This document shows positions 24,159 to 58,212 of a DNA stretch of 64,000 nucleotides, in pieces (positions within the stretch are counted from its first letter, which is position 1; every line of letters begins with the position of its first letter). Position numbers and translations under genes: made by a program. Origin of the DNA: Alicyclobacillus sp. SO9 (GTDB lineage: Bacteria > Bacillota > Bacilli > Alicyclobacillales > Alicyclobacillaceae); NCBI RefSeq assembly GCF_016406125.1, contig NZ_CP066339.1, positions 1,054,001-1,118,000 of the forward strand. The letters run 5' to 3'. A model generated the notes under the pieces. That model had not been told where the DNA came from. It worked only from the letters and a program-made list of their open reading frames with translations, and ran no database searches.

Positions 24159-24246
24159 CAGGAGGGCCAAGAAGTTTAAAAGTCAGTTTCTTTGTGGTAG
24201 TTAGGCGAATGGTGTAGACAAGACAACTTTGATGGGAGGTAGGGGG

Positions 24247-25206
24247 GTGCTTCCAACGAACGATGCACTCGGTTCAATAACGGACAATGACGCCGTTACT
24301 GTAAAAACCAGCCAAAGACGGCTTCTGCGGAAAAGCAGTTCGCTCTATCGATTTACACACTGGGCTTTTTTAGGGCCGGCTATGTTCTTTATCACTGTAT
24401 TTATCTTTGTTCCCGCGATTTATGTCATATACTTGAGCCTTTTGCACTGGAACTTGTTGAGTTCTCATCCGAAATTCGTCGGATTGGCTAACTACAAGTA
24501 CCTGTTTCACGACAGTGATTTTCGAACGGCTTTAAGCAACTCTGGCATCGTGAGCGCATCAATGGTGCTCATCGCATTGCCGCTGGGCCTAGGACTGGCC
24601 ATGCTGGCAGATTTAGGTTTGCGGGGCACAAAATTATATCGGACTATTCTCTTTGGTCCATATGTTATCCCACTGGTTGCGTCAGGACTGATTTGGTCCC
24701 TTCTCTTTAATGGAAGACATGGACTTGTGGACCAAGTATTGAGCATTTTCGGGATTCAGGGACCAAATTGGCTTGGATCGCAGCCCTACGCTTTGATTGC
24801 TGTTATCGTCGTTACAATTTGGCAGTTTACGGGCTACTACATGTTGATTTTCCTTGGCGGACTTCAAGGCGTGCCTGTTGGTTTAAAGGAGGCAGCAAAA
24901 GTTGACGGGGCAGGAGGATGGCGTGTCTTTACGTCCGTGACTTTGCCTTCATTGTCGCCGAGCATCTTCTTTGCGGTTGTTGTGTGCATTATTCAGTCGT
25001 TGCAGACCTTCGATCAAGTTTATATCATGACGAACGGCGGTCCCGACGGCTCGACAACGACACTTGTGTACTACATTTTCCGGCAGGGATTCGGGATGTA
25101 CAACATAGGTCCTGCTACAGCCGCATCCGTAATTCTTCTCGTCATACTGGCGGTATTAACGTTTATTCAGCTCCGCGTCAGTCAGAGATGGGTGGTGGAA
25201 GCATGA
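24247..25206 (+). CDS. Sugar ABC transporter permease (MalF-type)
   Basis: A 319-aa membrane protein of the binding-protein-dependent permease family. Six helices are visible after a hydrophilic N terminus of about 35 residues, and the EAA loop that contacts the ATPase is LKEAAKVDGAGGWRVF. GGPDGSTTTLVYYIF is typical of the carbohydrate class 1 MalF/UgpA branch. GTG 24247 with GGGAGGT six bases upstream is preferred over TTG 24229. Its stop overlaps the next permease start (ATGA). It forms a heterodimeric channel with that partner. Confidence 0.92.
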   Translation: MLPTNDALGSITDNDAVTVKTSQRRLLRKSSSLYRFTHWAFLGPAMFFITVFIFVPAIYVIYLSLLHWNLLSSHPKFVGLANYKYLFHDSDFRTALSNSGIVSASMVLIALPLGLGLAMLADLGLRGTKLYRTILFGPYVIPLVASGLIWSLLFNGRHGLVDQVLSIFGIQGPNWLGSQPYALIAVIVVTIWQFTGYYMLIFLGGLQGVPVGLKEAAKVDGAGGWRVFTSVTLPSLSPSIFFAVVVCIIQSLQTFDQVYIMTNGGPDGSTTTLVYYIFRQGFGMYNIGPATAASVILLVILAVLTFIQLRVSQRWVVEA

Positions 25207-26039
25207 CAACTGTGACGCCTTTTAAAAAGTTTTTCGGACATGCTGTGTTAATCGTAGCAAGTCTTCTGGTACTGCTTCCCGTCTATTGGATGGCGGTGAG
25301 TGCTGTTGAACCCAATGCGGATATTTTGTCGAGCACGATTCATTGGATTCCAACGCATTTCCAGCCGGGGAATTTTAGTAAAGCGCTTCATGCGCAGCCC
25401 TTCGGCCGGTTCTTTCTAAACAGCTTTGTGATGAGTACGATGATTGTTGTTCTGCAGGTCATTACTTCCAGCCTGGCTGCCTATGCGCTGGTATTTATAC
25501 CGATGAAGCGCAAACGGAGTTGGTTCTTCTCCATTCTTTTGGCCATGATGGTACCCATGCAGGCAACTTTCATACCCGTTTATCTCATCTTGAGCAGCGT
25601 GCATCTCATTAACACGTATTTGGGTCTCGTGTTGCCGTTTGCCGGCAGTGCATTTGGCATCTTTCTTCTCCGTCAGGGCTTTGTCTCTATTCCAAAAGAC
25701 CTAGTCCATGCAGCCAGAATTGACGGTGCATCGGAATGGAAAATCCTTCGTTCCATTGTTCTGCCAAATGCCAAACCAATGATTCTCACATTGATACTGT
25801 TGAACTTTGTGTTCCATTATAATGACCTCTTTTGGCCGCTGATTTCCACCAGCACGACAAACATGCGAGTCGTACCCGTTGCTCTGTCCTATTTCTTAAG
25901 TCAGGAAGCCGGGCAAACACTCCAGTGGAATCTGTTGATGGCTGCAGACCTTGTCACCATTATTCCTGTACTTGCGTTGTTCCTTGCAGGTCAGCGTTAC
26001 ATGATAAAGGGCATCATGGGCAGTGCAATTAAGGGTTAA
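25203..26039 (+). CDS. Sugar ABC transporter permease (MalG-type)
   Basis: A 278-aa six-helix permease with the EAA motif HAARIDGASEWKIL, the second half of the sugar channel. ATG 25203 overlaps the upstream stop codon by four bases, so translation is coupled. A longer frame exists upstream in this phase but lies inside the first permease gene. The binding-protein gene follows 107 bases later. No ATP-binding subunit is encoded here, so a shared MsmX-type ATPase encoded elsewhere is expected. Confidence 0.92.
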   Translation: MTTVTPFKKFFGHAVLIVASLLVLLPVYWMAVSAVEPNADILSSTIHWIPTHFQPGNFSKALHAQPFGRFFLNSFVMSTMIVVLQVITSSLAAYALVFIPMKRKRSWFFSILLAMMVPMQATFIPVYLILSSVHLINTYLGLVLPFAGSAFGIFLLRQGFVSIPKDLVHAARIDGASEWKILRSIVLPNAKPMILTLILLNFVFHYNDLFWPLISTSTTNMRVVPVALSYFLSQEAGQTLQWNLLMAADLVTIIPVLALFLAGQRYMIKGIMGSAIKG

Positions 26040-26146
26040 TTCGGTTGGACAAACCGAGTTCGTGTACGACTTCAGAGGCAACACGCAATTGTTCATCTAT
26101 AAATGGTTGCAAACCACATCGCGCAAAGCGCAAGGAGGAAAAGAAC

Positions 26147-27481
26147 TTGAAAAGAAGTTACCTAAAGATTGGTACAGTTGCATTGGCGACTGTTGGTGCT
26201 TTGGCCGCTGCAGGTTGCGGGACAGCTTCCGGAGGGAACAACTCGACTACCGGCAACACATCCAGTGCCGGCGGTTCATCTGGTAAGGTTGTTAACATTA
26301 CTTTCTGGTACGGTATTGGCAACAAGCTTAGTGATGATGTTCAAAAAATGGTAAAACAGTTTAATGCAGCGCATCCTGATATCCATGTTACAGCCACATA
26401 CCAGGGAAGCTATTCAGGCGGCGGCCCGGAGCAACAGAAACTGCTGGCGGCTTTAGCCTCTGGCAATCCGCCAGACCTTGCACAGATTGAAGTTAACTCA
26501 ATGGGTGTTTTTGCGAACTCGGGCAAACTGATGGACCTAACCAGCTTTATGAACCAAAGCTCCGTCGATAAGCCGAGCAACTTCCTGAATGGGATGTTGG
26601 TGAGCACAAAATGGGACGGAAAGTACTATGGAGTCCCGTTAAACCGCAGTGTGCCAGTACTCTTCTACAACGAAACCATGTTTAAAAAGGCTGGAATCAC
26701 AAACCCGCCGAAAACATGGAACGACGTAATTACCGATGCGAAGAAACTCACCAAGGGGTCGGGGAGCTCTAAAGTCTACGGCTATGGACCATTGGTAGAC
26801 TGGTGGCCTTGGGAATCTATGGTATGGTCATCTGGCAGCAAGATTCTGTCCAGTGACGGGAAAACAGCAGCGTTCAACACGCCGGAACTCAATCATATTC
26901 TTAGCATGCAACAGTCTCTTGTGAAGAGTAAAGATGCCCTTGTTGAGACTGGCCCTCATTACTGGGACCTGATGACCCAGGACTTCATTAAAGGGAAAAT
27001 CGCAATGGACATTGACTCCATTGGAGATGCTGCACAAGTGAAACAAGGCGTCGGTTCAAAGTTCAAATGGGGAACAGCGTACTTGCCTAGCGACAAAACG
27101 TTGAACGTTCCGCCCGGAGGCGGAGACATGGCTGTGATGAAGGGGATTTCGTCAGCTCATGCCAAAGCCGCAGAAAAGTTCATTGAGTGGTGGACTTCGC
27201 CAAAACAGACCTTGGAATGGTCCAAAATGACGGGATACCTTCCGGTACAAAAGGCTGCGGTGCAGAAGGCTTCTTATCAAACCTATCTGAAAAACAATCC
27301 TCAGTTCAAAACGGCCATCGAGGAACTGAAATACCAGAAGGCTGCGCCCGCTTCATCTCATCTGCTGGCCGTCCTTAAGTATGCGCAACAATCGCTGCAG
27401 GGCATATTCGATGAAGGCAAGCCAGTGCAATCAGAAATGAAGAAAGCAGCTGACCAAGCCAACAGTGTTCTCGGAGGCTGA
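26147..27481 (+). CDS. Sugar ABC transporter substrate-binding lipoprotein
   Basis: A 444-aa extracellular binding protein (family 1). Its signal peptide ends at the lipobox AAGC (Cys about 23), followed by a Gly/Ser/Asn linker. The body contains VNITFWYGIG, PPDLAQIEVNSMG, YGVPLNRSVPVLFYN, KTWNDVITDAKKL and GGGDMAVMKG, all usual in glycerol-3-phosphate or oligosaccharide binders (UgpB-like). TTG 26147 is preferred because AAGGAGG lies nine bases upstream and it starts the signal peptide cleanly; the frame is open earlier from 26045. The substrate is not deducible, and no glycoside hydrolase is nearby to hint at one. Confidence 0.92.
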   Translation: MKRSYLKIGTVALATVGALAAAGCGTASGGNNSTTGNTSSAGGSSGKVVNITFWYGIGNKLSDDVQKMVKQFNAAHPDIHVTATYQGSYSGGGPEQQKLLAALASGNPPDLAQIEVNSMGVFANSGKLMDLTSFMNQSSVDKPSNFLNGMLVSTKWDGKYYGVPLNRSVPVLFYNETMFKKAGITNPPKTWNDVITDAKKLTKGSGSSKVYGYGPLVDWWPWESMVWSSGSKILSSDGKTAAFNTPELNHILSMQQSLVKSKDALVETGPHYWDLMTQDFIKGKIAMDIDSIGDAAQVKQGVGSKFKWGTAYLPSDKTLNVPPGGGDMAVMKGISSAHAKAAEKFIEWWTSPKQTLEWSKMTGYLPVQKAAVQKASYQTYLKNNPQFKTAIEELKYQKAAPASSHLLAVLKYAQQSLQGIFDEGKPVQSEMKKAADQANSVLGG

Positions 27482-30229: not shown

Positions 30230-30321
30230 AAATTGGAAAAGGCAAACCAATTAGAAATGTTGGGGCGCAAAGCCAAAGTCTAAGGATCCGCCTTGGTCTA
30301 TGACTGCTTGGTTGCCGATTT
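30230..30321 (+). promoter_or_regulatory. c-di-GMP-I (GEMM) riboswitch aptamer
   Basis: The leader carries the GEMM core in order: GGCAAACC, a P2 hairpin capped by a GAAA tetraloop, GGGGCGCAAAGCC, a P3 hairpin whose arms hold TCTAAG and TATGA, and GGTTGCCGA closing P1. P1 pairs 30230-30236 with 30315-30321. TCTAAG/TATGA is the known 11-nt tetraloop receptor (CCTAAG/TATGG) with one compensatory base-pair change, strong evidence of a folded RNA. The two Gs before CAAACC suggest c-di-GMP rather than cGAMP preference (inference from remembered numbering). Downstream, GACGG/CCGTC (30344/30363) and GTCC/GGAC followed by seven Ts (30388-30394) form a possible expression platform. It precedes a GGDEF-EAL gene. 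Confidence 0.9.
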
Positions 30322-30421
30322 GAATAAATTGCTTTATTAAATCGACGGCGCAACCGACTGCACCGTCCATTTGCATTTTGTTAGGACTTTTTTTCAGATG
30401 AAGGGTATAAGGGTGAAGCGG

Positions 30422-34610: not shown

Positions 34611-35759
34611 TTATGCTTCTTGGTCACTTTCATAGGCTGTGATGATTTCAGTGGGTGTAGACGTATCGTGTTGTCGTGCAATTCTCATAGCTCGGACCAT
34701 CACATCCATGTCCTGCTGAAGCTGTGCATACTGCGTCTCAAGTCTGGACTTTTGCTGTATCAGTTGTCGAATCTGGTTGTCCTTCTCATCCAAATCGCGC
34801 AGTAATTCATCCCGTGCCTCTCTCAACACATCCAGTTCGCCTTCGTCGAGTACCTCAATACTCTGGAGATACTGAATCAGTTCCTTCTTGGTGATTTTCG
34901 GGCGTCCGTTTGCCGTGTCTCGGGGGCTGGGGTTCGCAACTTTCACAGCCTCATTACGGACCGCTTCCGTATGCACCGCATCAGAATAAGCTTCTGCATC
35001 CTCTGTCGGAGTTGGTGGTTGTACCGCCGGATTAGCCGAGGCTTCATCGGCCTCTGTGTCTGCGGGCTTGTCTGTGCTTCGGTTCTTGAGCAGGGGTTCA
35101 AGTACTGTCTTCCAGCGCGATCGCGTGACTGAAACGGTCTTTGACAGCCACTGCATACCGCTGCTTGAGATGCTCTGTCCTCCGTGCGCTCTCGTGTCCT
35201 CTGACAGGTCTGTGACTTCTCTTAAGTCTTCCAAGCTTAGCTTGTAGGTATGGAGAAACTCGAATAAATCCAGAAGACAAGTCTCGTGAAACGGGCCTTC
35301 AAGATTCAGGTCTGCACATTCCTCGCACACTACGTCTCGCATACGGTCAAGAAAATCTTCCGTAAACGCAAGTCGCTTACTGAGAACATAGACTATGTCG
35401 CCGTTTGACTCTCTAAACGCAGACAGGGTACCCTTTTCAACCAGTCGGTCGACAGCAAGTTCTGTGGCCACAGGGTGCATGAACCGGTCGCCGGTAGAGG
35501 TTGTGGTTAACTGTTCAATGGTTGCTGCAGATGTTCGAATCGTTCGTAAGTTTTCTTCCATTTTTTTGAGTATGATTTGTTCGGCTTCCTCTTCACTGTC
35601 AGGCCATGCTTCAATGACGTATGCAGAAGCATTGCCTCGATTTTGCACTTCGTCTCTGGCCTCCGAAGCCGTAACCTCTGTTTGAGTCGTAAATTTATAG
35701 AGTAATATGTCGTATCGTTCCGCCAGTTCAATTGCCTCGTAGCCCTTCAGGGTTCTCAC
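34611..35759 (-). CDS. Unrecognised 382-aa protein with C-terminal coiled coil
   Basis: No family was recognised. Residues 1-190 look globular, with a possible winged-helix segment around 100-130 (LAVDRLVEKGTLSAFRESNG) and a Cys pair (CEEC, about 144-147). Residues 215-285 are low-complexity, Ala/Glu/Pro/Thr-rich and probably disordered. Residues 290-365 are Leu/Glu/Arg/Gln-rich and strongly predicted to form a coiled coil (LREARDELLRDLDEKDNQI). There is no signal peptide or transmembrane helix, so it is cytoplasmic and probably oligomeric. GTG start with AGAGGTGA upstream. Single gene, with an empty 367-base region upstream. Confidence 0.7.
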   Translation of the reverse strand: MRTLKGYEAIELAERYDILLYKFTTQTEVTASEARDEVQNRGNASAYVIEAWPDSEEEAEQIILKKMEENLRTIRTSAATIEQLTTTSTGDRFMHPVATELAVDRLVEKGTLSAFRESNGDIVYVLSKRLAFTEDFLDRMRDVVCEECADLNLEGPFHETCLLDLFEFLHTYKLSLEDLREVTDLSEDTRAHGGQSISSSGMQWLSKTVSVTRSRWKTVLEPLLKNRSTDKPADTEADEASANPAVQPPTPTEDAEAYSDAVHTEAVRNEAVKVANPSPRDTANGRPKITKKELIQYLQSIEVLDEGELDVLREARDELLRDLDEKDNQIRQLIQQKSRLETQYAQLQQDMDVMVRAMRIARQHDTSTPTEIITAYESDQEA

Positions 35760-37326: not shown

Positions 37327-37501
37327 GGGGCAGAACCGATGCGTCCCAAGTGTGTGTAGTGAGCGGTCGCACGTCACAATGGTCATTGCGCCATACTTTC
37401 AATTTCATTAAAATAGAAGAGTGGGAACATGCGTTCGAATTCCATTTGAACCGGAACTCGAGTTTAAGACTAAAGTAGAAACTATGGTAGGAGTCGTTGA
37501 C

Positions 37502-38341
37502 GTGGCAGTGAAGAAGTATTTGCAGCCGTTTTTGAAGTGGGCTGGCGGCAAGAGACAGTTACTCAGTGACATTCGAGAACAGGCACCGAAAGACTATCAC
37601 ACATATTTTGAGCCGTTTGTGGGCGGAGGCGCTGTACTGTTCGACCTTCATCCCGCGCAGGCAGTCATCAACGATGTCAACGAAGAACTCGTCAATGCTT
37701 ATACCGTCATACGAGACGATGTTGAAAGTCTGCTGGAAGACCTGGCGAAGCATGAAAACAACAAGGCGTATTTTTATGCTCTGCGGGAGTTGGACAGAAA
37801 ATCTGACTATACCAGACTGTCCGCTGTAGAGCGAGCGTCACGGCTTATTTATTTAAATAAAACTTGTTACAACGGTCTGTTCCGGGTGAATAGTCAAGGA
37901 CAGTTCAACGTTCCTTTCGGGGATTACAAGAAGCCGAATATTAAGAATGAGAAAACCCTTCTGGCCGTTCATGAATACCTTTTATCGAGCAACGTATCTG
38001 TCATGAATACCGATTTCGCGGATGCCGTAAAGGATGCGGTGGCGGGTGATTTTGTCTACTTCGATCCCCCCTACGATCCCGTTTCTGACACATCCTCATT
38101 TACCGGCTACAGCTTGGGCGGCTTTGGTAAAATGGAACAGATTCGCCTCAAAGAAACGGTCGATGAGTTGTCGCGGCGGGGCTGCAAAGTCATGTTAAGC
38201 AACTCGGCAACCCAGTTTATTAAAGACTTGTATAAGGATTATAGACAGGTGTTTGTTGACGCCAAACGGGCCATTAATTCCAATGCTGCAAAGCGGGGAA
38301 AAATAGATGAGATACTGGTGATGAATTATGGGCCGCAATGA
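37502..38341 (+). CDS. Dam-family N6-adenine DNA methyltransferase (R-M modification subunit)
   Basis: A 279-aa alpha-class N6-adenine methylase. FLKWAGGKRQLL (residues 10-21) and YFEPFVGGGAVLFDL bind SAM, DPPYDPVS (from 188) is the catalytic motif, and YLNKTCYNGLFRVN is the conserved Dam/DpnM segment. Dam relatives in this group recognise GATC or sequences such as GATATC; specificity cannot be read off. GTG 37502 follows AGGAG by eight bases; a longer frame starts at 37421. The gene overlaps the next one by 14 bases, and that product has a nuclease-like motif, so the pair forms a type II restriction-modification cassette. Confidence 0.92.
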   Translation: MAVKKYLQPFLKWAGGKRQLLSDIREQAPKDYHTYFEPFVGGGAVLFDLHPAQAVINDVNEELVNAYTVIRDDVESLLEDLAKHENNKAYFYALRELDRKSDYTRLSAVERASRLIYLNKTCYNGLFRVNSQGQFNVPFGDYKKPNIKNEKTLLAVHEYLLSSNVSVMNTDFADAVKDAVAGDFVYFDPPYDPVSDTSSFTGYSLGGFGKMEQIRLKETVDELSRRGCKVMLSNSATQFIKDLYKDYRQVFVDAKRAINSNAAKRGKIDEILVMNYGPQ

Positions 38342-39605
38342 TGATGCGTGGGCCGTGCTGTTCGAACGACACAAAATTCTTCATGAAGTGGAACACAACG
38401 GTTTCTTTGAGATTTCCGCCAACGAGATTCGAACGGTGCGAGAGCCGCGTCTGATGGCAAAGTTTGATCATCACTCCAATTTGCCGGAGGTGTTTAGAAG
38501 AAATCACCTTTCCATCCTGCCAATTTCTCGCAACAGGTACATCATTGGAACCTTTAACGCATACCAGACGGTCAAATATGACACGAAACGGTCTCCGGTC
38601 CCCGTTTCCTTTCCCAGTGGTATTACAACGATTGAGCCTGCGAACCTGTATTCAGAAAGTGCGGCACTCCACTGCGCTTATGTCACAGGAATGATTGACA
38701 GACTGGTAGCAGAGAAGTCACTTCCTACTGTATCTGGACGAATGTCTTCAGACAGCTTTGCTTTTTCCATCGAGACAAAAGATGGGAATAGACACGGCAT
38801 TTCTGTATCGAACTCTCAGGTTGAAGTGGACGCGGGCTACGAAACAGAAAACTACATGCTGCTGATTGAAGCAAAAAAGGAAAGCACGAGAGATTTTTTG
38901 ATTCGACAGCTTTATTATCCCTACCGCTTGTGGAGCGCTAAGACGCATAAGGAAGTCAAGCCGGTGTTTTTTACCCACTCCAATGATGTTTTCAGTTTTT
39001 TTGTCTACGAGTTTACAGATTCTCTAAACTACAATTCTCTCCAATTGCTCACAGAACAACACTACATTGTTGAACATGAGGACATCTCCTTAGCAGACAT
39101 TCACAATCTCATCAGTAAGCATTCTGTTATCCCCGAACCGGCCTTACCCTTCCCTCAGGCCGACAGTTTCACTCGCGTCGTTGACCTAATGAACCTCTTG
39201 TTTGAGCAAGACCTCAGTAAAGAGCAGATTACATCCAACTACAACTTTGACAGCCGACAGACGAATTATTATACAAGTGCAGGCATGTATCTAGGGTTCA
39301 TTGAGCGCCTTAGAAATGATCAGGGTGAAGTAGCGTTTACACTAACTGAGCAGGGTGTCCGGGTTATGCGGTTACCGTACAAGGAGAAGTATCTTGCCCT
39401 TACCAGTACTATTCTGTCTCATCAGGTTTTCCGACGTATATTTCAGGAGACGGTTCAAATGGGACATCTGCCCGAGAGGCATCGAATCGTAGAAATAATG
39501 CGTCTGTGTAATTTGTACCGTGTTGGTCAGGAAAGCACCTATTTCCGCAGGGCACAAACCATCGAAAAGTGGATTGAATGGATTTTTCGACTGCCCATTT
39601 TATAA
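38328..39605 (+). CDS. Putative type II restriction endonuclease
   Basis: A 425-aa protein starting 14 bases before the end of the adenine methylase gene. I did not recognise a named family. A PD-(D/E)xK-like core is visible at residues 166-183: EVD (Asp168), then a strand MLLIEAKKE with Glu181 and Lys183, spaced normally for this fold. The C-terminal part (about 280-400) has a winged-helix look (TSAGMYLGFIERLRND, TLTEQGVRVMRLPYKEK), probably DNA-binding. Gene overlap with a Dam-type methylase and this core make a restriction enzyme the best call. No C-protein controller is present. Cutting the methylase's site is expected but unproven. Confidence 0.8.
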   Translation: MGRNDDAWAVLFERHKILHEVEHNGFFEISANEIRTVREPRLMAKFDHHSNLPEVFRRNHLSILPISRNRYIIGTFNAYQTVKYDTKRSPVPVSFPSGITTIEPANLYSESAALHCAYVTGMIDRLVAEKSLPTVSGRMSSDSFAFSIETKDGNRHGISVSNSQVEVDAGYETENYMLLIEAKKESTRDFLIRQLYYPYRLWSAKTHKEVKPVFFTHSNDVFSFFVYEFTDSLNYNSLQLLTEQHYIVEHEDISLADIHNLISKHSVIPEPALPFPQADSFTRVVDLMNLLFEQDLSKEQITSNYNFDSRQTNYYTSAGMYLGFIERLRNDQGEVAFTLTEQGVRVMRLPYKEKYLALTSTILSHQVFRRIFQETVQMGHLPERHRIVEIMRLCNLYRVGQESTYFRRAQTIEKWIEWIFRLPIL

Positions 39606-50550: not shown

Positions 50551-51159
50551 TCACTCCTTTGTTAAGAATTCCATTTTGGATTCTTCACTGTCTGTGAACA
50601 CAACACGACCGTTTTCCATCGATTCAATGGAGGCCAATGAAAGGATAGGTATATTTCTAGCCTGGATTTTGGCGCGGCCGTCCTGGAATCTTTTTTCGAT
50701 GACAACTCCGAGTGCCACTACATTTGCTTCGGCTGATTGTAAAATATCTAACAGGCCCATGACCGCATTTCCGTTGGCTAGAATGTCATCTATTACAAGC
50801 ACTCTTTCTCCCGGGCGGATAAAGGACTTGGATACGGTGATATCCACTGTCTCGTTTCGCGTGTAGGACATGACAGGGGCCGAAAAGACATCATCACTTT
50901 GGGTTACTGCACGTTTTTTCTTGGCATACACGAACGGGACACCAAGAGCAAGAGCGGTCGCATAGGCAATATGGATACCGCTGGCTTCAACTGTTATTAC
51001 TTTGTCTACTTGACTGTTCGCGAAGGCGTTGGCAAACTCTCGGCCAATCTCTTGAATGAGAGTTGGCTGAACTTGATGGTTAAGGAATGAATCTACTTTC
51101 AGCACCTGACTGGACAGAACTCGTCCTTCTTTCAGGATATAGTCGTGCAAGTATTGCAT
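50551..51159 (-). CDS. xpt: Xanthine phosphoribosyltransferase
   Basis: A 202-aa purine salvage enzyme that joins xanthine to PRPP giving XMP. The PRPP-binding loop is VLVIDDILANGNA, and EASGIHIAYATALALGVPFVYAKKK is the Xpt-type purine-site region. The length equals that of B. subtilis Xpt. ATG preceded by AGGAGGC. It forms an operon with pbuX and is controlled by the aptamer at 51448-51514 and the attenuator at 51286-51346. Confidence 0.96.
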   Translation of the reverse strand: MQYLHDYILKEGRVLSSQVLKVDSFLNHQVQPTLIQEIGREFANAFANSQVDKVITVEASGIHIAYATALALGVPFVYAKKKRAVTQSDDVFSAPVMSYTRNETVDITVSKSFIRPGERVLVIDDILANGNAVMGLLDILQSAEANVVALGVVIEKRFQDGRAKIQARNIPILSLASIESMENGRVVFTDSEESKMEFLTKE

Positions 51160-51285: not shown

Positions 51286-51346
51286 GAAAAAACCCAGAAG
51301 GAGAAGCTTCACTCGTGTCGCGCAGTGAAACCTCTCCATCTGGGTT
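51286..51346 (-). terminator. Attenuator terminator in the xpt leader
   Basis: Arms 51324-51346 and 51291-51313 pair over 23 positions with few mismatches (core AACCCAG/CTGGGTT, then GGAGA and AGTG blocks), followed on the minus strand by six Ts. It lies about 100 bases after the aptamer and about 130 before xpt, as expected for the off state formed when guanine is bound. Confidence 0.85.
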
Positions 51347-51447
51347 TTTATCCCTCTGGTGTATCCAGGTTGATGAGACAACGTGGATTTGTACCGCTTG
51401 GACCAGACCTTTGCAGTCAGCAAAGCGGAACCCTAGGCACACTTTCA

Positions 51448-51514
51448 CTCGTAGTCAAACGATTTACGGTCGTTTGGTAGAAACTCGTGAGCCATATTCC
51501 CACTATTATACGAG
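51448..51514 (-). promoter_or_regulatory. Purine (guanine-class) riboswitch aptamer
   Basis: On the minus strand the 67 bases have the full purine aptamer: P1 arms CTCGTA / TACGAG, TATAAT, the ATATGG segment of P2, GTTTCTACC, P3 closing AAACGA/TCGTTT around CCGTAAA, and GACTACG. The C in GACTACG is the specificity base and indicates guanine/hypoxanthine/xanthine rather than adenine, which has GATTACG. It sits upstream of xpt-pbuX. Note that the aptamer to attenuator distance (about 100 bases) is longer than in B. subtilis. Confidence 0.96.
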
Positions 51515-51551
51515 CTAATGAACAAACATAGCCGTGATTGTGAATGCAGAC

Positions 51552-56613: not shown

Positions 56614-58212
56614 CTAAATTGCCAACAACGATTCTCTTTTCTCCAGGTACTCATCGTATCGTCCTGAAAAGTCCACAATTCCGCTTGGCGTCAATTCAAT
56701 GATACGGGTGGCCACGTCTGTCACCATTTGTCGCGCATGTGAAACAAAGATGACGCTGCCGTCGAAGTCTACTAAGGCCTTCGTCAACGCATCAATCGAT
56801 TCCAAATCGAGATGGTTAGTCGGTTCGTCAAGGACCAGCACATTGCCTTGCAACAGCAGCATTTTTCCCAATGCAAGGCGAGCTGTCTCTCCGCCCGATA
56901 ACACATCTGTAGACTTGTGTACCTCATCTTTGGAAAACAGCATCCGGCCGAGAATGCTTCGGAGCGTTTGGGTATCTGCTTCTTCGTCGAAACTGCCCAG
57001 CCATTCATAAACAGTAGTGTCGTTGGGGATTGTCTCATTGTGATCCTGTGTAAAATACGTAGGCTGAGCAGATTGCCCCCAGGTAACGCTTCCCTCGTCA
57101 GGTTGAAGTTCGCCCATAATGACGTTGAGGAGCGTCGTCTTCCCAATACCGTTGGGGCCAATAACCGCTACCTTTTCTCCATTCATAATATCCAGACTGA
57201 TGTCTTTCAAGACATGCAAATCAGCAAAGGACTTGTGGATACGGTCCACAGATACAACTTGTTTTCCCAGAGGTTGCAGTGACGTAAACTTGATGTACGG
57301 GGAGACTCTGGAAGACGGACGAATTTCTTGTATCTCAATTTTCTCGATTTGTTTTTGCCGGCTTGTTGCCTGCTTTGCTTTACTCTTATTGGCTGAAAAT
57401 CGGGCCACGAAGTCTTTCAGTTCTGCAATCTTTTCAAGGTTTTTTGCGTTCTCAGCTTGCAGTTGTTCTCTAGCCAGTGTACTGGCTGCAACAAAGTAAT
57501 CGTAGTTTCCCGAAAACATGGAAATTTGGTTGTAGTCGACGTCCACCATGTGTGTGCAGACGGTATTCAAGAAATGCCGATCATGAGAAATGATGACCAT
57601 TGTGCCCTTATGGTTCAGCAGGAAGTTCTCCAACCAGCGAATGGTGTCTAAATCCAAATGGTTCGTGGGCTCATCGAGCAGCAGTACATCAGGTCGTCCG
57701 AACAGGACTTGAGCCAGAAGAACACGGAGTTTGAAACCGCCAGTGAGCGTATCCATTTTATTGGCGTGCTTCTCAACCGGGATGCCCAGCCCTTCCAGCA
57801 ACTCTGCTGCAAAATACTCCGCTGAATACCCGTCCATCTCAGCATAGGCACTTTCCAGTTCGCCAACTTTCATGCCGTCTTCTTCCGTCATCTCCGCAAG
57901 TGCGTAGAGGCGTTCGCGTTCTTTCATAACGGACCACAGTTCCGGATGCCCCATCAGCACCGTATTTAACACGGTTTCTTCATCGTATTTGTAGTGATCC
58001 TGCTGAAGTACACCAACACGTATACCCTCTGCAATACTCACATCACCCGTCGTAGGTTCAAAGTCACCCACAAGGATTTTCATGAAGGTTGATTTCCCCG
58101 ATCCGTTGGCTCCAATGAGGCCATAGCGGTTGCCTTCGTCAAAACTCAGGTTGACATCTTCAAACAAGGTACGGCTTCCGAACGAGACTGACACGTCTTT
58201 CACGCGAATCAT
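56614..58212 (-). CDS. ABC-F ATPase (YbiT-like translation factor)
   Basis: A 532-aa protein with two ABC domains and no membrane segment. Domain 1 has GANGSGKST, LTGGFKLRVLLAQ and VLLLDEPTNHLD; domain 2 has GPNGIGKTT, LSGGETARLALGK and VLVLDEPTNHLD. The linker (about 240-310, rich in Lys/Glu) is the P-site tRNA interaction motif. The length and the lack of an N-terminal arm match YbiT/YkpA-type housekeeping factors that relieve stalled ribosomes, rather than antibiotic-resistance ABC-F proteins; this is an inference. AAAAGGAG precedes ATG 58212. Confidence 0.92.
   Translation of the reverse strand: MIRVKDVSVSFGSRTLFEDVNLSFDEGNRYGLIGANGSGKSTFMKILVGDFEPTTGDVSIAEGIRVGVLQQDHYKYDEETVLNTVLMGHPELWSVMKERERLYALAEMTEEDGMKVGELESAYAEMDGYSAEYFAAELLEGLGIPVEKHANKMDTLTGGFKLRVLLAQVLFGRPDVLLLDEPTNHLDLDTIRWLENFLLNHKGTMVIISHDRHFLNTVCTHMVDVDYNQISMFSGNYDYFVAASTLAREQLQAENAKNLEKIAELKDFVARFSANKSKAKQATSRQKQIEKIEIQEIRPSSRVSPYIKFTSLQPLGKQVVSVDRIHKSFADLHVLKDISLDIMNGEKVAVIGPNGIGKTTLLNVIMGELQPDEGSVTWGQSAQPTYFTQDHNETIPNDTTVYEWLGSFDEEADTQTLRSILGRMLFSKDEVHKSTDVLSGGETARLALGKMLLLQGNVLVLDEPTNHLDLESIDALTKALVDFDGSVIFVSHARQMVTDVATRIIELTPSGIVDFSGRYDEYLEKRESLLAI

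What the first reader, a model, noticed from the sequence alone, without database searches (positions are those of the whole stretch)
37502..39605. Compact restriction-modification cassette with an unfamiliar nuclease
A Dam-type methylase gene overlaps by 14 bases a 425-aa partner with an EVD...EAK core at residues 166-183 and a winged-helix-like C terminus. I could not assign the partner to a named restriction family. No controller gene is present, so the overlap itself may keep nuclease levels behind methylase levels. It could represent a little-described specificity.
Basis: partly seen in the sequence, partly recalled or inferred. Interest (0 to 1): 0.55.

Follow-up and report, generated by a model that had tools for sequence, protein, structure and literature searches.

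The report
GATC-type restriction-modification gene pair
Two overlapping genes look like a standard bacterial DNA-defence pair, a Dam-like enzyme that marks DNA and a partner that probably cuts unmarked DNA at GATC; the cutting enzyme belongs to an already catalogued but unstudied family, and among the host's relatives the pair was found only where the usual Dam gene was not.

Summary
The two genes exist as described. M (GTG 37502 to 38341) is a Dam/M.DpnII-type adenine methylase. R (38328-39605, 425 aa, 14-base overlap) is a type II restriction enzyme of a catalogued family: Pfam DUF6996+DUF6997+DUF7226, and PADLOC REase_II PDLC03513; no held paper contains those DUF names. Its core is predicted as a PD-(D/E)xK nuclease with D168/E181/K183 invariant, its C terminus as a winged helix. 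M adjoins 37 of 37 full-length R matches; M and R distances co-vary, r 0.89. The target is probably the common GATC: M is closest to M.DpnII, GATC is the most avoided 4-mer in the host sample (ratio 0.48), GATATC is not avoided. Some non-carriers avoid GATC as strongly, and a phylum-wide test was not significant, so this is support, not proof. In the host's family an E. coli-type Dam gene is present in 32 of 36 genomes without R (one broken) and 0 of 5 with R, and M also occurs without R: the system may have taken over the Dam role. The overlap is not general. New member of a known kind.

The parts
37486..37493 (+). GGTAGGAG, likely ribosome-binding site of M
   Evidence: read directly, 8 bases before GTG 37502
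37502..38341 (+). M: Dam/M.DpnII-type DNA adenine N6-methyltransferase, 279 aa (285 aa if ATG 37484 is the start)
   Evidence: PF02086 E 2.6e-69; TIGR00571 dam E 6.2e-89; best solved relative 2dpm DpnM E 4.5e-84
38328..38341 (+). 14-base overlap of the end of M and the start of R
38328..39605 (+). R: predicted type II restriction endonuclease, 425 aa
   Evidence: PADLOC REase_II PDLC03513 E 3.5e-95, residues 4-420
38340..38546 (+). DUF6996, residues 5-73 of R
   Evidence: PF22515 E 1.2e-30
38547..39068 (+). DUF6997, residues 74-247 of R, predicted PD-(D/E)xK nuclease core
   Evidence: PF22518 E 7.2e-67; model of residues 78-252 pLDDT 83.1, pTM 0.82; structural rows led by BsaXI Z 8.3
38823..38876 (+). 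E166-V-D168 ... E181-A-K183, predicted catalytic residues
   Evidence: invariant in 19 proteins and in the 14 of the second alignment; on neighbouring strands 164-172 and 176-183 of the model
39174..39593 (+). DUF7226, residues 283-422 of R, predicted winged-helix DNA-binding part
   Evidence: PF23871 E 1.7e-53; FokI 7-239 Z 8.8, 144 aligned, then MarR-type rows from Z 8.2 down

Best explanation
An ordinary two-gene type II restriction-modification system that probably acts on GATC. M methylates the adenine of GATC in host DNA. R, a PD-(D/E)xK nuclease with a C-terminal winged helix, probably cuts the same site when it is unmethylated, so unmarked incoming DNA is destroyed. M comes first and R probably follows on the same message. 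Shown by computation: gene structure, family membership, conserved residues, constant pairing and co-divergence, GATC avoidance in the host. Predicted: the folds. Inferred: catalysis, the exact target and cut position, block of R by M's methylation, defence as the main role.
For: R matches a type II restriction enzyme model end to end. PD-(D/E)xK nucleases (BsaXI, BpuSI, AdnAB, Hjc, AddAB, Cas4, RecBCD and others) dominate the structural list of the core with D168/E181/K183 invariant. M lies within 200 bases of R in 40 of 45 loci and in 37 of 37 with a full-length R match. M and R distances over 21 pairs: r 0.892, 0 of 5000 permutations as high. M is nearest to DpnM of the GATC system DpnII. 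GATC: 78 in the window against 249.9 expected; ratio 0.48 over 400 kb, lowest of 256 4-mers; GATATC 0.97. All five family carriers lie at 0.42-0.48. MutH-family and DpnII-family nucleases: no match in 41 of 41 family genomes.
Against: Avoidance is not specific: of 20 sampled non-carriers in the family, five (G001, G002, G005, G008, G024) are below 0.5. Across the phylum, 10 carriers against 20 non-carriers gave p 0.11, and three carriers (G080, G395, G403) show no avoidance. No member of R's family is known to me to be biochemically characterised, no solved relative was found by sequence, and Foldseek had no match at E 0.001. Closely related M genes also occur without R, so M does not imply R.
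Confidence: 0.78

Rival explanations
1. A true type II pair, but for another target than GATC, for example a longer site that contains GATC or another site read by a Dam-family enzyme.
For: Dam-family methylases are known for other sites, such as GATATC of EcoRV (recalled). CGATCG (0.48) and TGATCA (0.72) are low even for their GATC content. Some carriers do not avoid GATC.
Against: GATATC is at 0.97, AGATCT 1.14 and GGATCC 0.86, while GATC as a whole is the most avoided 4-mer of the host. M is closest to DpnM. Absence of the E. coli-type Dam in carriers fits a shared GATC target.
Confidence: 0.13
2. A former restriction system now kept mainly as the cell's Dam: M does the work and R is weak or idle.
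For: The E. coli-type Dam gene is absent in 5 of 5 carriers and present in 32 of 36 non-carriers, one of them broken. M relatives without R beside them are in G455, G059 and G016 contig 119; the G016 one is sister to a paired M (100/99). R lost and M kept is reported for a GATC system in Prevotella (PMC5608340, passages).
Against: R is full length with the family's invariant residues; carriers in four genera have open full-length copies.
Confidence: 0.12
3. R is a methyl-dependent enzyme like DpnI (a PD-(D/E)xK nuclease fused to a winged helix that senses G6mATC).
For: The order nuclease core then winged helix is that of DpnI (PMC11037411, passages).
Against: M adjoins 37 of 37 full-length R matches, which would be self-destructive; the same paper argues that modification-dependent fusions stand alone. 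R gave no match to the DpnI Pfam family at E up to 1.
Confidence: 0.03

Closest known systems
PADLOC REase_II PDLC03513 / Pfam DUF6996-DUF6997-DUF7226 proteins
   Same: Full-length match and same domain order; same Dam-type methylase partner.
   Different: 58-60% identity to the nearest relatives in the host's family, 30-50% to the others aligned.
DpnII system (M.DpnII/DpnM and R.DpnII)
   Same: M is closest to DpnM among solved structures; probably the same GATC site.
   Different: R does not match the DpnII endonuclease family PF04556 at E up to 1, and there is no second methylase beside the pair; that DpnII systems have one is in PMC4687349 (passage).
Type IIG/IIB nuclease domains (BsaXI, BpuSI)
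   Same: Best structural rows for the core: BsaXI Z 8.3, 134 aligned, rmsd 4.1; BpuSI Z 7.0, 125 aligned, rmsd 3.5.
   Different: Those chains are 870-915 residues and carry the methylase in the same protein (recalled); here M and R are separate genes. Z values are close to the background named in the tool's note.
FokI recognition region
   Same: R 272-421 aligns with FokI 7-239, Z 8.8, 144 aligned, 14% identity.
   Different: No sequence support, and in FokI this part precedes the nuclease (recalled) while here it follows it.
E. coli Dam and the solitary Dam of the host's family
   Same: Same methylase family, probably the same GATC mark.
   Different: M is much closer to DpnM (4.5e-84) than to E. 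coli Dam (1.4e-43) and has a restriction partner.

Membership tests
PDLC03513 / DUF6996-DUF6997-DUF7226 restriction enzymes | match to the models over the whole protein | tested here: met
Orthodox type II restriction-modification system | separate methylase and endonuclease genes side by side | tested here: met
Orthodox type II restriction-modification system | nuclease fold with catalytic residues | tested here: met
   by prediction only:
Orthodox type II restriction-modification system | endonuclease cuts unmethylated target and M protects it | not testable with these tools
   needs enzyme assays
GATC-specific systems | target GATC | tested here: inconclusive
   DpnM similarity and avoidance support it; non-carriers and the phylum test do not discriminate
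Dam/M.DpnII methylases | family match with intact DPPY motif | tested here: met
   DPPY at residue 188
DpnII endonucleases (PF04556) | match of R to the family model | tested here: not met
   no match at E up to 1
MutH/Sau3AI family (PF02976; that it holds Sau3AI is recalled) | match of R to the family model | tested here: not met
   no match at E up to 1
DpnI-like methyl-dependent enzymes | no protecting methylase beside the gene | tested here: not met
   M beside 37 of 37 full-length R matches; criterion from PMC11037411 (passage)
FokI | homologous recognition domains | tested here: inconclusive
   Z 8.8 over 144 residues, but MarR rows follow at Z 8.2 and below and no sequence match to any solved chain

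The most novel reading that the evidence does not exclude
In this bacterial family a GATC restriction-modification system has repeatedly displaced the resident E. coli-type Dam: its methylase becomes the cell's only Dam, which makes the pair hard to lose, and in some lineages R is later dropped and M stays as the new house Dam. R would be a further lineage of GATC cutter, a PD-(D/E)xK core plus a FokI-like winged helix, apart from DpnII and Sau3AI.
Probability: 0.4. Interest if true: 0.5.

Novelty: new member of a known kind. Interest (0 to 1): 0.3.

Why it matters
By itself it is one more copy of a catalogued but apparently unstudied restriction family, a likely additional GATC enzyme, and a practical hint that such hosts should be transformed with GATC-methylated DNA. 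The distribution is a small natural experiment on how restriction systems replace solitary methylases: within three genera, carriers lack the Dam gene that their relatives have.

Tried and rejected
Overlap as the timing device of the family: rejected, because overlaps vary, gaps occur and one pair is on opposite strands. It may still couple translation in this copy.

GATC avoidance as proof of specificity: not accepted. It is strong in the host and in the five family carriers, which are lower than 20 sampled non-carriers (of 36; two-sided p 0.02), but five of those 20 are below 0.5 too. Several samples are short (7-20 kb) and lie around Dam-family genes. The wider test used 10 of the 13 phylum genomes over the DUF6997 cut-off against the first 20 listed non-carriers of 384 (15 of them from the window's own class, so not random) and gave p 0.11; GATC ranked first or second in 5 of 10 and in 5 of 20. 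Five of six fetched plasmid stretches were counted: ratios 0.01, 0.39, 0.56, 1.04, 1.11.

Other GATC nucleases as the cause of avoidance: no match to the MutH or DpnII models in 41 of 41 family genomes, with a control genome that rang. The DpnI search rang in no control and says nothing.

Insertion of the pair at the old Dam place: 45 window proteins against 28 stretches around Dam-family or R genes gave single scattered matches near the Dam genes of non-carriers. Near the pairs of G035 and G036, homologues of window genes 24229-27481 (three in order) and 56614-58212 lie a few kb away, while in the window they are 10-18 kb from the pair; not followed.

Mobile context in the window: eight of nine flanking proteins have Pfam matches, none of a transposase, integrase or phage type; the ninth (34611-35759) has none. 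No R in 50,697 phage records, but 20 loci in IMG/VR viral contigs.

Solved relatives of R by sequence: one weak chance-like row at E 0.4, none with the profile at E up to 10. Foldseek: none at E 0.001. DpnII, Sau3AI and DpnI are not among the rows shown by VIA-align, which excludes nothing. Some rows there are unrelated (DinG Z 6.9, mitoribosomal proteins up to Z 5.6).

Promoter and terminator scan: about as many sites as in shuffles.

Literature: no held paper contains DUF6996, DUF6997 or DUF7226. Searches on GATC enzymes and solitary methylases gave background only. REBASE could not be searched, so a named relative may exist.

Full report
What is there. The window is bases 1054001-1118000 of contig 1 of a 5.29 Mb genome. 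At 37502-38341 lies a Dam-type methylase gene and at 38328-39605 a 425-codon gene, overlapping by 14 bases. GTG 37502 has a good ribosome-binding site and agrees with most relatives. The genome has one copy of R and, by search with M, no other Dam-family match at E 0.001.

What the parts are. R matches Pfam DUF6996 (residues 5-73), DUF6997 (74-247) and DUF7226 (283-422) and the PADLOC type II restriction enzyme model PDLC03513 over residues 4-420. NCBIfam has no credible match for R (best E 0.06). M belongs to the Dam family; its best solved relative is DpnM, methylase of the DpnII system (2dpm, E 4.5e-84), well ahead of E. coli Dam (1.4e-43).

Structure. AlphaFold2 with 14 sequences gave R at mean pLDDT 88.4 and pTM 0.62; the core alone (residues 78-252) gave 83.1 and 0.82. 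Foldseek found nothing at E 0.001. VIA-align put BsaXI first and second (Z 8.3 with 134 aligned at 4.1 A; 7.8), BpuSI third (7.0, 125 aligned at 3.5 A), and many PD-(D/E)xK nucleases below, with some unrelated rows among them. Together with invariant D168, E181 and K183 on neighbouring strands this supports a PD-(D/E)xK core, as a prediction. The C-terminal part matches FokI's recognition region (Z 8.8, 144 aligned, 3.9 A) and many MarR-type winged helices (Z 8.2 and below).

Pairing. Of 46 loci tested, 45 held R at E 1e-5 (L021 did not); M lay within 200 bases in 40, at 915 bases in one (L126), and was not seen in four (L018, L120, L121, L127), all partial R matches, two of them cut by the start of the locus. 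All 37 full-length R matches (from residue 5 or earlier to 419 or later) had M; in 36 it is upstream on the same strand, in L024 on the opposite strand. The set holds near-duplicates among viral contigs (L109-L111, L116-L119, L114/L125). L015 (same place as L004) and L022 (weak partial match) were left out beforehand. Over 21 pairs M and R distances correlate at 0.892, 0 of 5000 permutations as high. In the phylum 13 of 398 sampled genomes pass the DUF6997 cut-off, the window's included; 21 of 72,556 plasmid records match R, from Lactobacillales to the cyanobacterium Stanieria.

Target. The window has 78 GATC sites against 249.9 (sd 15.8) in shuffles. Over 400 kb of the genome the ratio to the expectation from 3-mers is 0.48, lowest of 256 4-mers; GATATC is 0.97. 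All five carriers of the family lie at 0.42-0.48 and rank first; 20 non-carriers range from 0.32 to 1.05 (two-sided p 0.02). Within genus g5 the two carriers (0.42, 0.44) are below seven sampled non-carriers (0.54-1.05), and in g13 it is 0.42 against 0.65, but in g2 the non-carrier is lower (0.38 against 0.46). A survey finds site avoidance in about half of 1774 orthodox type II cases, and avoidance without the system as a possible trace of a lost one (PMC4687349, abstract and passages). The phylum-wide comparison was not significant (p 0.11). GATC is the best reading, not a proven one.

An unexpected distribution. Most genomes of the family carry a gene close to E. coli Dam (P0003, E 3.4e-94 to 2g1p): 31 of 36 non-carriers have it whole and one (G008) in two pieces, while 0 of 5 carriers have it (Fisher p 1.7e-4, or 3.4e-4 counting G008 as lacking it; not corrected for kinship). 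In seven such loci whose neighbours I listed, no neighbour recurs as a partner (in three more the gene was hidden by longer frames in my filter), so I call it solitary on that basis. The contrast repeats inside genera g5, g13 and g2; the window's genus has one genome. Carrier G016 is only 82% complete. G455, which lacks both R and the E. coli-type gene, has a relative of M (64%) with no R beside it, between genes that look like metE and cobQ (the two names are my reading of the translations). G016 contig 119 and G059 (another family of the class) also have M without R beside it. The G016 solitary M is sister to a paired M with 100/99 support. The simplest story is that the restriction system and the resident Dam make the same mark, so one replaces the other, and that R is sometimes lost afterwards. 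No MutH-family gene was found in the 41 genomes, so the role of Dam there is open.

Mechanism. Most likely M marks host GATC sites and R cuts unmarked ones. Translation of R after M on one message is plausible from the overlap, but gaps and an opposite-strand arrangement in relatives show that the family does not depend on it. A DpnI-like, methyl-dependent R is unlikely because M accompanies every full-length R seen (reasoning as in PMC11037411, passages).

Verdict. A real restriction-modification pair, in a family catalogued as restriction enzymes but not found characterised in the held papers under its Pfam names, with a probable common specificity.

Noticed in passing
relatives of the host, e.g. 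L093 5473-6264 (-): A gene close to E. coli Dam is present in 32 of 41 genomes of the host's bacterial family (one copy broken), but no MutH-family match in 41 of 41. GATC is strongly avoided in several of these genomes though not in those richest in G+C. Unexplained.
   Followed up: partly
window 51335-51533 (-): A purine riboswitch (83.8 bits) runs directly into a Guanidine-I-class aptamer (67.4 bits, gathering 63), upstream of the frame 50551-51159. It may be the known guanine-PRPP tandem (recalled), since PRPP aptamers resemble that class.
   Followed up: no
window 30231-30319 (+): c-di-GMP-I riboswitch, 64.2 bits, just before the frame starting at 30371.
   Followed up: no
window 34611-35759 (-): A 382-aa frame with no Pfam match at E 0.001.
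   Followed up: no
L101 11349-11582 (G022): A remnant of a second M (78 residues, 56% identity) lies near the intact pair, on the other strand.
   Followed up: no
L024 (Macrococcoides plasmid): The 8.2 kb stretch with this pair has no GATC, 29 expected; its R is annotated 'translation elongation factor', probably a wrong name.
   Followed up: no
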